Shown piece by piece: positions 11,280 through 17,888 of a stretch of 64,000 nucleotides of DNA. Position 1 is the stretch's first letter; each line of letters opens with the position of its first letter. The notes under the pieces were generated by a model. The model ran no database searches. It worked only from the letters and a program-made list of their open reading frames with translations, and was not told the origin of the DNA. A program made the translations under genes and the position numbers. Source of the stretch: Corallococcus sp. AS-1-6 (GTDB lineage: Bacteria > Myxococcota > Myxococcia > Myxococcales > Myxococcaceae); the NCBI RefSeq assembly GCF_020037015.1, contig NZ_JAIQDE010000003.1, positions 62,001 to 126,000 of the forward strand. The letters are read 5' to 3'.

Positions 11280-12485
11280 TCACGGCACCCACAACGCGCC
11301 ATCCGTCAGGGGGGCCTCGGAGCCGCCGCCCCCCATCCCTCCCCAGATGAAGAGGGCGCTGCCCGTCCACACGCCCACGTGCCCGGCGCGCGCGGAGGGG
11401 GCGCCCTGGGTGCGCAGCGGCGCCCACGTGTCCGTCTCCGGGTCGTAGGCCGCGCCGTCCGAGCAGACACCCCCGCTGGGGCCGCACTTCGATGACGCGC
11501 CACCCCAGATGATCATCTTCGAACCGGTCCACACCGCGATGTGTCCCGTGCGAGGCGAGGGCGCGCCCCTGGCGGAGATGGGGGTCCACTTCCGGTACAG
11601 CGGATCGAACGCGGCGCCCTGCTCGCAATAGACCGGCGGGTCCTGTTGGGCATCGCCACAGCCGATCCCGCCCCAGATGATCATCTTCGAGCCGGTCCAC
11701 ACCGCCGTGTGCGCCCAGCGGCCCGTGGGCGCCCCTTCGGTCGGCATCTCCACCCAGTGGCCCGCGAAGGGGCCGTACATCGAGCCGTCCGCCAGGGCCA
11801 CGTCCACGCCGCCGGCCCCATTTCCGTCTCCGCCCCAGTAGAGCACCTCCCCGGTGGTCTCGCCGCTCCACACCGCGGAGTGGTAGCGGCGCGCCACGGG
11901 AGCGTCGACGAAGTCCATGGTCGTCCAGCGGCCTGTGTCGACGTGGTACCGGGCTCCGTCCCCGAACACGCGCCCCCGCTGGAGATCCTGGCCCCCCCAC
12001 ACCACCATCAGATCTCCGGTCCAGGTGGCCGTGTGTCCGCCTCGCGCAGAGGGGGCGTACTGGGACGTGATGGCGCTCCAGGTGTCGGTGGCGGGATCGT
12101 AGGTCGCGCCGTCGCCACAGGGGCCCAGGGGGCTGCCACAGCCGAGCCCGCCCCAGACGATCATCTTCTCGCCGGTCCACACCGCCGAGTGCTGCGTGCG
12201 CGCGGACGGCGCCCCCTGTGTCGACAGGGGTGTCCAGGTCTTCGCCGCCACGTTGAAGCGGGCCCCGTCGCCGCAGACGCCGTTGACGGTGCAGCCGCCC
12301 AGCCCGCCCCAGAGCAGGACGTTCTGGCCATCGAAGACACTGGACACCTGGAGCCCCGTGCCCAGGGGCGCGCCCGAGGGCAGCGGCGTCCAGGTGCCCA
12401 CCTCCTGCGCCTCCGGACCGGCCTGCTCCTGGGGACTGGAGCAGCAGACCAGGGTCACGAGGAGCAGGCCTGACGTCAGGCGCAT
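11280..12485 (-). CDS. Kelch-like repeat lipoprotein
   Basis: 401 residues from the ATG at 12485. The signal sequence MRLTSGLLLVTLVCCSSP ends in a lipobox-like Cys pair. The rest is about seven repeats of roughly 50 residues, each with a core like HSAVWTGEKMIVWGG followed by GDGA-x-Y/F-D/N-P-x-T-D-T-W. These are galactose-oxidase/kelch-type beta-propeller blades, and six or seven would close one propeller. It is probably a secreted or outer-membrane binding protein; no enzymatic residues are evident. It is the last of three exported-protein genes on this strand and ends convergent with the hydroxylase operon, four bases from its stop. Confidence 0.8.
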   Translation of the reverse strand: MRLTSGLLLVTLVCCSSPQEQAGPEAQEVGTWTPLPSGAPLGTGLQVSSVFDGQNVLLWGGLGGCTVNGVCGDGARFNVAAKTWTPLSTQGAPSARTQHSAVWTGEKMIVWGGLGCGSPLGPCGDGATYDPATDTWSAITSQYAPSARGGHTATWTGDLMVVWGGQDLQRGRVFGDGARYHVDTGRWTTMDFVDAPVARRYHSAVWSGETTGEVLYWGGDGNGAGGVDVALADGSMYGPFAGHWVEMPTEGAPTGRWAHTAVWTGSKMIIWGGIGCGDAQQDPPVYCEQGAAFDPLYRKWTPISARGAPSPRTGHIAVWTGSKMIIWGGASSKCGPSGGVCSDGAAYDPETDTWAPLRTQGAPSARAGHVGVWTGSALFIWGGMGGGGSEAPLTDGALWVP

Positions 12486-12541
12486 CCGAAACGGCTTCAC
12501 TGCGTCACGCTCCGAATGCGCCATCTCTCATTTCCTTCCCG

Positions 12542-13405
12542 TTACCAGGGGCGGGGGCTGCCGCAGGTGTAGCCCGGGCCGTTGATGAAGCGGGACGCGG
12601 CGCGGGCATTGGCATCCGACGCCGCAGTCTGCCTCACGCTCAGCGGAATCCACCACTGGGATTGATCCGCCACATCGCAGAGGAACTCCACCTGCACCTG
12701 GTTGGGCGAGTGGAACCGGCTCGCGGTGCCATTGTTCTCCCACATGGCACCAAAGACATACTTGGAGATGCCGTGGAAGTAGAAGTAGTCGCAGCCGTTG
12801 ATGGTGCACGCGCCCTGCGGGCCGGGACGGTGGCCGCCGGTGTTGCCGTTGTCGTAGCTGTACTTGTCGAAGTAGGCGTGCCAGCCCTCGTGCATGTAGT
12901 CACCGGCGCGCGAGCCCGGGTTGGAGTTGCTGACGGTGGGGTTGTAGAGCGGGCACGCGGTCTCCACGCGGTCCGTGTCCCACGGCCAGAAGCGCGGGGT
13001 GAAGGTCCCGAAGACGTCCGTGCGGTCGGTGACGCTGTGGTAGAGGCTGTCGTGGAAGTTGCTGCTGCGCGCCTCCGCCGTGGCCCGGTAGTCCTCGGTG
13101 CCGTGGAAGGACTGGTCCCAGTTGTCCAGCATGCCGTACGTCAGCAGGTAGGACGCGTTCCAGTGCTTGGGGTACTCCAGGTTGACGTTGCAGGCGTCAT
13201 TCCAGCCGCGGTTGCTCCAGTCACCGGAGCGCAGGCCGTAGGCCTTGTACTGCCAGAGGAAGAAGTCCTGCCAGCAGCCGTGGGTGTTCCAGAGGTCCCG
13301 GTCCGCCTGGCTCGCGGCCGTCTGGGTGCAGACGGCGCCGGCTTCGGTGGCCAGACCGAAGGCCAGGACGGACGACATCAGGGCAATGCCTTGCTTGAGA
13401 TTCAT
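12542..13405 (-). CDS. Exported protein with an HExxH motif, possible metallopeptidase
   Basis: 287 residues with a clear signal peptide (MNLKQGIALM... cleaved near EAGA-V). The mature protein is rich in aromatic residues and Cys (about seven), suggesting disulfides. Residues 172-176 read HEGWH inside YMHEGWHAYFDKY, which matches the zinc-binding HExxH of gluzincin/metzincin-type peptidases; a third ligand is not obvious. I do not recognise the family, and the C-terminal half (GCDYFYFHGISKYVFGAMW) gives no further clue. GGAG lies 11 bases before the start. It is 33 bases downstream of the HEAT-like gene and 56 bases upstream of the kelch gene, probably in one transcript. Confidence 0.72.
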   Translation of the reverse strand: MNLKQGIALMSSVLAFGLATEAGAVCTQTAASQADRDLWNTHGCWQDFFLWQYKAYGLRSGDWSNRGWNDACNVNLEYPKHWNASYLLTYGMLDNWDQSFHGTEDYRATAEARSSNFHDSLYHSVTDRTDVFGTFTPRFWPWDTDRVETACPLYNPTVSNSNPGSRAGDYMHEGWHAYFDKYSYDNGNTGGHRPGPQGACTINGCDYFYFHGISKYVFGAMWENNGTASRFHSPNQVQVEFLCDVADQSQWWIPLSVRQTAASDANARAASRFINGPGYTCGSPRPW

Positions 13406-13438
13406 GGGCGTTCTCGCTCCTCAGGTCGTGAGGGAAGG

Positions 13439-14299
13439 TCAGAACTTCGGAGGGGTCACGTCGTAGGTGTTGGGCTTCTCCTCGGGCGGGCGCGGGTCCT
13501 TCCGCTCGGGGTTCGGCGCCTGCACTTCCGGGTGGGCCTTGAGGTACGCGGTGAGCTTGCGGTTGAAGGCCTCCGCGCCTTCGCCGCTGACGCGCCGGAC
13601 GCGGTCCAGGTACAGGCGCTCCTCCTTGCGGACGAACGGCTCCAACTCCTTGCGAGCCTCCAGCGTGTCCCCGCGGTTCCAGAGGTACGCGCTGATGGCC
13701 TCGGCGCGGACGATGACGGAGGGGTGGTTGCCGGCCTGGTACGCCACCTCGCGGTCGAACTCCGCGTTGCGCAGGTAGGCGACGCCCGCGATGGCCTTGG
13801 CCTGGAGGCGCGCCTGCTGGGCCTCTTCCTGGAGCTCGCCCTCGATGACGGTGCCCTTGGTGGGCAGGGGCATGCGCACGAACTCCACGAGGAACTTCGC
13901 GCCGTCGTAGGTCCGCATCTCGCCCAGCAGGCCCAGGGCGACGAGCGCGCGGCTGGTGTCGCCGGACTTGTTCGCTTCGATGATCTCCTCGATGAAGGCC
14001 TGGATGAGCTCCGGGCTCTTCGCGGCGGAGACCAGCGCCCGGCGCGCGTCGTTCTGCTCCTCCACCACGGACTGACCGGCCCAGGTGATGAATGCATTGA
14101 CGCTCTTGCGAGCATCCTCCACGGTCATCTTCGGCGGCGAGTGCAGGGGCCGGCCCGCGATGACGCGGCTGGGAGGAAGGTCCGACGGCTTTTCCGCGGT
14201 GGGACGGTCCTGCGCGACGGCCATGGAGCCGGACATCAGCCCCAGGGTCACGAAGAAAGTGCCTGCGCGCGAGAAGACCCGCCTGGTGTTGCGCTGCAT
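13439..14299 (-). CDS. Exported HEAT-like helical repeat protein of unknown function
   Basis: 286 residues from the ATG at 14299 (MQRNTRRVFSRAGTF...). A signal peptide ends at GSMAVAQ-D. The body is made of helix pairs (for example RALVALGLLGEMRTYDGAKFLVEFV and AIAGVAYLRNAEFDREVAYQ) like HEAT/armadillo units, and the C-terminus is Pro-rich. No catalytic motif is seen. It is the first gene of the three-gene exported set. An upstream extension to 14359 is open but has no signal-like N-terminus, so the internal ATG is preferred. Confidence 0.7.
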   Translation of the reverse strand: MQRNTRRVFSRAGTFFVTLGLMSGSMAVAQDRPTAEKPSDLPPSRVIAGRPLHSPPKMTVEDARKSVNAFITWAGQSVVEEQNDARRALVSAAKSPELIQAFIEEIIEANKSGDTSRALVALGLLGEMRTYDGAKFLVEFVRMPLPTKGTVIEGELQEEAQQARLQAKAIAGVAYLRNAEFDREVAYQAGNHPSVIVRAEAISAYLWNRGDTLEARKELEPFVRKEERLYLDRVRRVSGEGAEAFNRKLTAYLKAHPEVQAPNPERKDPRPPEEKPNTYDVTPPKF

Positions 14300-14481
14300 G
14301 GTGTTGCCTCCATTCACAGACGTGAAGGAGGTGCCCGCCAAAGGGGCTCCCCCTGCCACGACGCGCCGCTACCGCCGCGACCCGTGGCTGGGCTGACCCA
14401 CTTCAATCGCCGTACCAGCACGCTCCCACAGGGAGGGGAGGGTATGGCAGATCCCGGTTGTTGCTTCCGGAGCGACAGGGG

Positions 14482-14881
14482 GTGTTGTTCGCGTTGCCTG
14501 AGGGGCACGCCTTTCGCTGCCAGCACAAGGGATTGAGCCTGGAGAAGACGTAGTCCCTGGAGCCGTTCACCTCCGTGGCTCTTTACATGCGCGACAAGGG
14601 ATCCACGGAGGGGCTCTTCATCGCGAAGGTCTATGTCGTGGCGCTGATGGGGGACTCGGGCGCCGTCGTGCTGTCTCCAGGACGTCGACGTGCGCGACGC
14701 GCGGACGCATGTCTCCCAGGGGCGGGGCATCGTCATCGAGCATGACAAGGGCCACGAACTACTGGGCATGGACTTGTCACAGGACGAACTCGAATGGGCG
14801 GGGACGGCGCTGCGCCGCGCCCTGGCCGCCCGTCCAAACCTGGACTCACGTCAGCAAGAACGCATCACCGCCAGACCTTGA
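14482..14881 (+). pseudogene. Decayed gene with an in-frame stop and a frameshift
   Basis: Reading from GTG 14482 gives a protein-like segment (LFALPEGHAFRCQHKGLSLE) that hits TAG at 14551-14553. The same frame continues as VALYMRDKGSTEGLFIAKVY and VVALMGDSGAVVLSPG, then loses sense near 14665-14680. From there the next frame carries on coherently (VDVRDARTHVSQGRGIVIEH, DKGHELLGMDLSQDELEW) to a stop at 14879-14881. The coherent composition on both sides of a stop and a shift suggests one broken gene of about 130 codons. No family was recognised. A sequencing error would explain the shift but is less likely to explain both lesions. Confidence 0.45.
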
Positions 14882-14889
14882 GCCTGGAC

Positions 14890-15666
14890 TCACCGGAATT
14901 CAACGCTGCTGCTCTTGTACCATGCACTGGGATGGGAGTTTGCCTCCACCACGGGAATCCTGCATGAGGCCCAGCGAATGACGTCGCCCAGTACCTCTTG
15001 TTTGAGATTCGCCGTACAGGCAACGATGACGGCTGCGGCATTGTAGCGCTCAAGGCGGCTGAGGAAGCCGGCACGTTCATTCATCCCGTAATACAAGGTC
15101 CGCCAGGTGGTATCCCTCAAGCTCCGAGCCGGCTTGTTTTTAGCGAGGGATTGCCGGTGGAGTTCGTAGAGCGAGGCTTGAAACTGGACCGGATTGCAAA
15201 TCAGCAACTCATAGTGATCCGGCGGCAAACCAAGTCGCTGATGGCGATGGAGCAGCGAGAGGATGTGTGCGGCGATGTTCCTGCCGGTCGTATTTTGCGC
15301 AGGGGCAATGGGCATGAATGTCGACGTGTACTCATGCTCGTGCGGTGACTCGATGACCAGCACAATCCGCTTGTGCTGTGAAACGTGCTCATCTGCCCGC
15401 ACATCTCCCGAGAATTGATCGTCATTGATGATGCCGGCGGAGCCACGGCAAGGTGCGGGTGGCATCATGGACTGTGTGGGTGGGCCGTTGGTGAGATCGA
15501 GCACATACCGGACCACGTCAGGCACTCGTGCGCACTCGAGATAAAGCCCGAATACAACAGGACGGCCATTGACGATCCTGCACTGGACTTGAGCTGCTGG
15601 CAGGGACGATTGGAGAAGGTTCCACTGCATTCCGGCGTTCGCCGTCACGGGTAGGACAAATGTCAT
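14890..15666 (-). CDS. Lower-GC orphan protein of unknown function
   Basis: 258 residues from the ATG at 15666 (MTFVLPVTANAGMQ); an in-frame upstream start at 15720 is also possible. Base composition is clearly lower in G+C than its neighbours (roughly high fifties per cent by eye), and rare AT-rich codons are common, which suggests horizontal acquisition. The conserved-looking core is IVLVIESPHEHEY, then TTGRNIAAHILSLL and HYELLICNPVQFQASLYE, then a RDTTWRTLYY helix and AAVIVACTANLKQEVL. This strand order vaguely recalls uracil-DNA-glycosylase-like folds, but the similarity is only a guess. It lies beside a decayed gene and is divergent from thiC. Confidence 0.65.
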   Translation of the reverse strand: MTFVLPVTANAGMQWNLLQSSLPAAQVQCRIVNGRPVVFGLYLECARVPDVVRYVLDLTNGPPTQSMMPPAPCRGSAGIINDDQFSGDVRADEHVSQHKRIVLVIESPHEHEYTSTFMPIAPAQNTTGRNIAAHILSLLHRHQRLGLPPDHYELLICNPVQFQASLYELHRQSLAKNKPARSLRDTTWRTLYYGMNERAGFLSRLERYNAAAVIVACTANLKQEVLGDVIRWASCRIPVVEANSHPSAWYKSSSVEFR

Positions 15667-15825
15667 GGAATCAAGTCCTCTCTGCTGAGTCGGATCGGAA
15701 CTGGATGAGATTGCCCTCACTCATCACGGTCCTGAGCATAGAGCTGCGCAGCCGCCCGGTGATGATGGATGCCTCCCCACAGGGCCACCGTGCGTCCACT
15801 GGACCCAGGCTCCGCTCCGCCCGGG

Positions 15826-15854: not shown

Positions 15855-15863
15855 GCTCCACAG

Positions 15864-17888
<2,025 letters not shown>

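What the first reader, a model, noticed from the sequence alone, without database searches (positions are those of the whole stretch)
12542..14299. Exported HEGWH protein in a three-gene set with HEAT-like and kelch-like proteins
A Cys/Trp-rich secreted protein with an HExxH motif is encoded between an exported helical-repeat protein and a kelch-propeller lipoprotein, spaced 33 and 56 bases. A secreted peptidase with a scaffold and a surface binding protein would fit predatory or matrix biology.
Basis: partly seen in the sequence, partly recalled or inferred. Interest (0 to 1): 0.55.

Follow-up and report, generated by a model that had tools for sequence, protein, structure and literature searches.

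The report
Exported HExxH protein with HEAT partner
A predatory soil bacterium carries an exported protein with a zinc-protease-like signature that is encoded beside the same kind of helical-repeat partner in three bacterial phyla, which suggests a little-known enzyme-plus-partner pair whose function has not been tested.

Summary
The window is from a Corallococcus-type genome. The HEGWH protein (12542-13405, minus strand) looks exported and matches no Pfam or NCBIfam model. HEGWH and its 8 cysteines are invariant in 9 aligned homologues, including an Acidobacteria MAG and a Deinococcus plasmid at 66-67% identity. The core unit is a pair: the HEAT-like protein (13439-14299) lies directly upstream of each intact HEGWH gene found (17 of 17 genomes or records). 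Of 72,556 plasmid records each protein hits one, the same one. Four distant HExxH lineages also have a HEAT-like gene upstream, two of them with weak partner homology; two others have none. Kelch belongs to the set in 13 of 13 testable Myxococcaceae, not in Deinococcus, and stands alone in one Corallococcus. AlphaFold supports a solenoid for the partner (pLDDT 77.5) but failed on the HEGWH protein (42.4), so helix placement and third zinc ligand stay open. Best reading: an exported zincin-like metallohydrolase with a cognate HEAT-solenoid partner (restraint or anchor), moved between phyla as a pair. Zinc, catalysis and binding are inferred.

The parts
13439..14299 (-). Exported-looking HEAT-like alpha-solenoid protein (286 aa), first gene of the set
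   Evidence: AlphaFold pLDDT 77.5, 12 helices, blocks of residues 51-230 at 87-97; closest solved folds are alphaRep/HEAT-like and CpcE/CpcF, Z 10-11, a range where repeats can match by arrangement alone; homologue directly upstream of each intact HEGWH gene found
12542..13405 (-). Exported-looking HEGWH protein (287 aa), candidate metallohydrolase; 8 Cys
   Evidence: HEGWH and 8 Cys invariant in 9 homologues from Myxococcota, an Acidobacteria MAG and Deinococcus; no Pfam, NCBIfam or PDB sequence match
12878..12892 (-). Codons of HEGWH, residues 172-176
   Evidence: Residue positions; H172, E173 and H176 aligned and invariant in distant relatives
12830..12832 (-). Codon of His192, favoured candidate for a third metal ligand
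   Evidence: Aligned His in all 9 rows of A6; alignment A7 does not keep it in one column
11280..12485 (-). Kelch beta-propeller protein (401 aa), third gene in Myxococcaceae
   Evidence: PF24681 E 1.4e-46; directly downstream in 13 of 13 testable Myxococcaceae sets; absent downstream of the Deinococcus pair; present without the pair in G028

Best explanation
The core is a two-gene module. The first gene makes an exported (in Deinococcus probably lipid-anchored) HEAT-like solenoid. The second makes an exported, probably disulfide-bonded HExxH metallohydrolase, most likely a peptidase, whose metal would be held by H172, H176 and a third ligand (best candidate H192, alternatives D206 or E240), with E173 as general base. 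The solenoid is made first and most likely binds the enzyme in the cell envelope, to keep it inactive or in place until release, much as the ankyrin-repeat protein Bd3460 restrains the Bdellovibrio endopeptidases. In Myxococcaceae a surface kelch protein was added to the set. Shown: conservation, linkage, export-type N-termini (by eye), solenoid fold prediction. Inferred: metal, catalysis, binding, restraint, target, co-transcription.
For: HEGWH plus 8 Cys invariant over three phyla. HEAT partner upstream in 15 of 15 intact Myxococcaceae sets, and at E <= 0.001 in no other of the 96 family genomes; also in the Acidobacteria MAG and on the Deinococcus plasmid, the one record of 72,556 that either protein hits. 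Four distant HExxH lineages (G067 second locus, G032/G033, G095, G106) also have an upstream HEAT-like gene. Among 279 ORF calls a profile of HEGWH-type plus G033/G032 partners finds the G095 partner at E 4.3e-6, the next ORF being at 0.21; in a search with the G033 partner alone 13 of the 14 other matches up to E 10 are partners, the best at E 0.0084. The set lies in different chromosomal settings in different genera. The HEGWH protein has the lowest dN/dS of the three in each of 9 comparisons.
Against: No usable structure for the HEGWH protein (pLDDT 42.4; Foldseek best E 2.4). The spacing from HExxH to the next His varies (4, 5, 14 or 15 residues) and alignment A7 does not align this His. 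No HEAT gene was seen beside two distant HExxH relatives (G110; G450). HHalign of the HEGWH profile with the G095 and G106 proteins is not significant (E 0.11 and 0.39), nor is that of HEAT profile A3 with any of four distant partners (E 0.03-0.08). The partners at the G067 second locus and in G106 are weak: E 0.058 and 0.016 with the widest profiles that left them out, level with one unrelated 1272-aa ORF (0.067 and 0.045). No metal, activity or binding data.
Confidence: 0.5

Rival explanations
1. The HEAT protein is not an inhibitor but an anchor, chaperone or substrate adaptor; the pair is an envelope or matrix enzyme complex of ordinary housekeeping kind, with kelch as a surface ligand binder.
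For: The Deinococcus partner carries a LLAC lipobox (read by eye); some kelch copies have standard lipoboxes; the partner gene comes first, as for an assembly factor.
Against: Patchy presence (10 intact of 16 genomes of the genus, 3 of 27 in g19, 2 of 2 in g5) is unlike a housekeeping role.
Confidence: 0.25
2. The pair works like the Listeria Mtz/Tim pair: the secreted peptidase cleaves and releases its partner, and the released partner acts.
For: Similar layout of a secreted HExxH-type protein and an exported or lipid-anchored neighbour; Mtz/Tim known from the abstract of PMC8235301.
Against: The partner there is TIMP-like, here a predicted helical solenoid; no comparison with the Listeria proteins was run.
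Confidence: 0.1
3. The HEGWH protein is not an enzyme: HExxH is a relic or structural feature of a Cys/Trp-rich binding protein.
For: No known peptidase family matched; third ligand unproven; many other residues are as invariant as HEGWH within the close family.
Against: H172, E173 and H176 stay invariant in distant relatives (21-32% identity to the G033 protein), where only a few other columns do.
Confidence: 0.15

Closest known systems
Metzincin metallopeptidases (HEXXHXXGXX(H/D), Met-turn; as described in passages of PMC3427221)
   Same: HExxH; distant relatives in G032/G033 (HESRHGAGKSH) and G450 (HEARHVDGFPH) have the exact metzincin spacing with Gly; weak Reprolysin_5 match of the G033 protein, E 0.08, 13.6 bits against a cut-off of 27.
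   Different: The window protein has 15 residues between HEGWH and the next His and lacks the Gly spacing; no Met-turn shown; no Pfam match.
Bdellovibrio Bd3459 endopeptidase / Bd3460 ankyrin self-protection pair (PMC4686830; abstract and passages)
   Same: Exported hydrolase encoded beside an exported helical-repeat protein in a predatory bacterium.
   Different: The Bd3459 enzyme is a DD-endopeptidase and not an HExxH protein (the latter recalled); ankyrin not HEAT; the ankyrin gene comes after the enzyme gene; inhibition there is shown, here inferred.
Listeria Mtz/Tim metzincin and TIMP-like lipoprotein pair (PMC8235301; abstract)
   Same: Secreted metzincin-type peptidase encoded as a pair with a lipoprotein partner.
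   Different: Partner fold differs; phage-derived regulatory locus there.
HEAT-like solenoids: alphaRep and phycocyanin lyase CpcE/CpcF
   Same: Fold arrangement of the partner (best VIA Z 10-11, rmsd about 4-7 A).
   Different: Low identity (about 12-16%); best Foldseek E 0.0067, none at 0.001; no shared function implied.

Membership tests
Metzincins | HExxHxxGxx(H/D) zinc motif | tested here: not met
   The window protein reads HEGWH, then 15 residues, then His192. Distant relatives in G032/G033 and G450 do meet it. It is therefore not filed as a metzincin.
Metzincins | Met-turn below the zinc | tested here: inconclusive
   M221 is invariant in the 9 close homologues, but the column is not Met in the G067 second-locus and G033 proteins in alignment A4; no structure.
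Archaemetzincins | HEXXHXXGXXHCX4CXMX17CXXC | tested here: not met
   Sequence compared by eye with the motif given in PMC3427221.
Gluzincins (thermolysin type) | HExxH plus downstream Glu as third ligand, Asp four residues on (recalled) | tested here: inconclusive
   E240 and D244 have this spacing and are invariant in the close family; E240 is replaced in the G033 and G067 second-locus relatives.
Aspzincins | HExxH plus Asp in a GTxD-type motif (recalled) | tested here: inconclusive
   An Asp aligns with D206 in all 10 rows of A7, but Pfam gives no match of any kind.
Any zinc metallopeptidase | Bound zinc and peptidase activity | not testable with these tools
   Needs purified protein.
HEAT-repeat proteins (partner) | Alpha-alpha solenoid | tested here: met
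   AlphaFold model, blocks of residues 51-230 at 87-97 pLDDT, helical apart from a short strand pair; alphaRep among the best matches. Predicted, not solved.
HEAT-repeat proteins (partner) | Pfam HEAT model at or above its cut-off | tested here: not met
   Window protein: no HEAT match. Relatives fall below 27.7 bits: G033 27.2, Deinococcus 21.6, Acidobacteria MAG 14.2, G106 14.9, G067 second locus 12.9; G095 none.
Kelch propellers (third gene) | Kelch repeats | tested here: met
   PF24681 159 bits against 50.
Bd3459/Bd3460-type self-protection pairs | Partner binds and inhibits the enzyme | not testable with these tools
   Needs purified proteins or deletion strains.

The most novel reading that the evidence does not exclude
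This is one branch of an undescribed kind of enzyme-and-immunity pair: exported metzincin-like hydrolases, each with its own co-encoded HEAT-solenoid inhibitor, diversified in predatory myxobacteria and passed between phyla, even on a Deinococcus plasmid.
Probability: 0.3. Interest if true: 0.65.

Novelty: new variant of a known kind. Interest (0 to 1): 0.5.

Why it matters
Predatory bacteria must secrete lytic enzymes without harming themselves, and few self-protection partners are known to me. A HExxH protein without a Pfam family whose HEAT neighbour is kept over three phyla gives a small, testable pair for that question and a candidate new metallohydrolase family.

Tried and rejected
AlphaFold of the HEGWH protein with 9 sequences: pLDDT 42.4, not used for fold claims; its Foldseek search gave nothing (25 matches, best E 2.4). 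PDB sequence searches: no match with the protein, A2 and A4; only chance-level matches with A6 (best E 0.22), with the G067 second-locus protein (E 0.037, to peptidoglycan recognition protein 3, outside the HExxH region) and with the G450 protein (best E 0.19). Two viral-contig scans: no relative. Phage collection: no match. PADLOC: no match. PHROGs: none for HEGWH, two weak unnamed families for HEAT. Plasmid searches with three distant relatives: no match. The Smr match of the HEAT protein (21.5 bits, cut-off 25.7) was rejected as below its cut-off. Matches in G108 (E 0.003), G544 and G564 (E 0.006) were dropped because no HExxH protein was among the ORFs called at the fetched locus. Three further weak matches (L040-L042, E 0.0006-0.005), which carry stop codons inside, were dropped too. 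The ORF caller is home-made and missed the HEAT genes of L069 and L022, so these were not among the 279 ORFs. HHalign of A2 with the G067 second-locus protein was not run. E240/D244 as thermolysin-type third ligand was the first idea and was demoted because distant relatives lack E240. Promoter/terminator scan: nothing found, uninformative for such DNA. Kelch as an essential third part was rejected because of Deinococcus and G028. Literature: the listings of searches (1 paper; 8 of 10 shown; 0; 10 of 15 shown; 10 of 196 shown) contained no description of this family; the library is partial and the papers listed were not all opened.

Full report
What is there. The window (G000:C33:62001-126000) comes from a genome whose closest named matches are Corallococcus. 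On the minus strand lie, in order of reading, a HEAT-like protein (13439-14299), the HEGWH protein (12542-13405) and a kelch protein (11280-12485), 33 and 56 bases apart. The first two proteins have signal-peptide-like starts by eye. The window's kelch protein has only a poor lipobox, while copies in G028, G053 and G014 have good ones.

The HEGWH protein. It matches nothing in Pfam, NCBIfam or the PDB by sequence. Full-length homologues are in 15 of 96 genomes of the family: 10 of 16 of the genus (plus a fragment in G025), 2 of 2 in g5 and 3 of 27 in g19. Beyond the family they were found in an Acidobacteria MAG (1 of 396 genomes searched in that phylum, drawn from a larger group) and on one Deinococcus plasmid of 72,556 records. 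At 66-67% identity across phyla for an exported protein this points to horizontal transfer (inference; no tree was built). HEGWH and all 8 cysteines are invariant in the 9 aligned homologues. dN/dS between the window and 9 other genomes is 0.15-0.34, against 0.25-0.69 for the HEAT protein and 0.29-0.55 for the kelch protein.

The pair is the unit. The HEAT search over the same 96 genomes hit exactly the 15 genomes with a full-length HEGWH gene at E <= 0.001. In each, the gene lies directly upstream on the same strand, 28-39 bases away. It is also directly upstream in the Acidobacteria MAG (27 bases) and in Deinococcus (56 bases by the annotated start). The HEAT protein's only plasmid match is that same Deinococcus record. 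The kelch gene is directly downstream in 13 of 15 Myxococcaceae sets; in the other two, G023 and G030, the held DNA ends 135 and 147 bases downstream. The MAG contig ends 230 bases downstream, too soon to tell, and Deinococcus has none in 8.0 kb downstream. G028 keeps a kelch gene (66% identical) without the pair. The set stands next to different genes in different genera. So kelch is an addition.

Distant relatives. A profile of the HEGWH family found a HEARH protein at a second locus in G067 (E 2.8e-5; 195 genomes searched). With that protein as query (193 genomes), a HESRH protein in G033 (E 1.2e-28) and G032 (1.4e-26), weak matches in G095 (HEATH, 4.9e-4) and G110 (HEARH, 3.6e-4), and in return four HEGWH-family genes (8.1e-8 to 3.6e-5) were found. 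A wider profile added G106 (HEATH, 3.2e-6; 195 genomes) and G450 (HEARH, 3.5e-5; 396 genomes). E-values are per genome. Directly upstream of the G067, G032/G033, G095 and G106 genes lies a HEAT-like gene; none was seen next to the G110 and G450 genes. The partner relationship was tested against 279 ORF calls from the context loci: a profile of HEGWH-type plus G033/G032 partners found the G095 partner at 4.3e-6 with the next ORF at 0.21. In single-sequence searches with the four distant partners the best non-self matches are other partners, though each only at E 0.0035-0.014; for the G033 partner 13 of 14 other matches up to E 10 are partners. The G067 and G106 partners stay weak: 0.058 and 0.016 with the widest profiles that left them out, level with one unrelated 1272-aa ORF at 0.067 and 0.045. 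HHalign comparisons of single distant sequences with the two HEGWH-type profiles were significant only for the G033 HESRH protein (E 3.5e-6, probability 88%); the other six, covering both sides of the pair, were not. The chain of homology is therefore good for G032/G033, fair for G095 and weaker for the rest.

Metal site. H172, E173 and H176 are invariant in the aligned lineages. For a third ligand His192 is favoured: it aligns with a His in all 9 rows of A6, and in G032/G033 and G450 the corresponding stretch has exact metzincin spacing, HESRHGAGKSH and HEARHVDGFPH. But the spacing is 15 in the window protein, and alignment A7 does not keep this His together. An Asp aligns with D206 in all rows of A7; E240/D244 have thermolysin-like spacing (recalled), but E240 is lost in distant relatives. 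AlphaFold with 9 sequences gave pLDDT 42.4; the helix at 172-181 is therefore no evidence either way.

Partner fold. AlphaFold with 9 sequences gave pLDDT 77.5 and twelve helices in a solenoid, with the signal region and tail at low confidence. Foldseek (best E 0.0067) and VIA-align favour alphaRep, designed HEAT and CpcE/CpcF (Z 10-11). The tool warns that repeats reach such Z by arrangement alone, so this supports the fold class only. Pfam's HEAT models stay below their cut-off throughout.

How it may work. An exported hydrolase kept with an exported solenoid suggests a physical complex. In Bdellovibrio an exported ankyrin protein encoded beside an endopeptidase binds and inhibits it for self-protection (PMC4686830, abstract and passages). 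In Listeria a secreted metzincin acts with a TIMP-like lipoprotein encoded as its pair (PMC8235301, abstract). Patchy presence fits the open, probably horizontally built accessory gene sets reported for Corallococcus predation (PMC6306037, abstract). I favour restraint or placement of a zincin-like enzyme by the HEAT protein; this is inference.

Verdict. Observation confirmed; interpretation partly supported; the core is two genes, not three. It is a new variant of a known kind (exported hydrolase plus repeat-protein partner) built from a HExxH family that the searched libraries do not hold.

Noticed in passing
15859-15971: TPP riboswitch (76.8 bits) at the start of a large plus-strand gene, taken for thiC from recall of its sequence and the riboswitch; no family search was run on it.
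   Followed up: no
14545-14839: Two pieces (residues 101-144 and 308-368, 77-80% identity) of a 378-aa putative membrane protein whose gene is intact next to the set in G018 (L066:3709-4845); in the window it looks like a decayed remnant.
   Followed up: partly
L016:1505-1926 (G025): A remnant matching window 12429-12852 (end of HEGWH and start of kelch, 83% identity), on another contig than the thiC-side site in that genome.
   Followed up: partly
L062 (G028): Kelch gene present without the pair; window DNA 12524-15771 has no match in this stretch at E 0.001.
   Followed up: partly
L114:973-1830 (G450): Exported-looking protein with HEARHVDGFPH and a CD/Cys pattern in a genome of the MAG's phylum, no Pfam match, no HEAT neighbour: maybe a wider family.
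   Followed up: partly
L100:2432-4258 (G110): 609-aa ORF with HEARH and a sub-threshold beta/gamma-crystallin match; the next ORF upstream looks, by eye, like a formylglycine-generating-enzyme-type protein, not HEAT.
   Followed up: partly
L025:13714-14886: S8 serine peptidase annotated about 5 kb from the Deinococcus pair.
   Followed up: no
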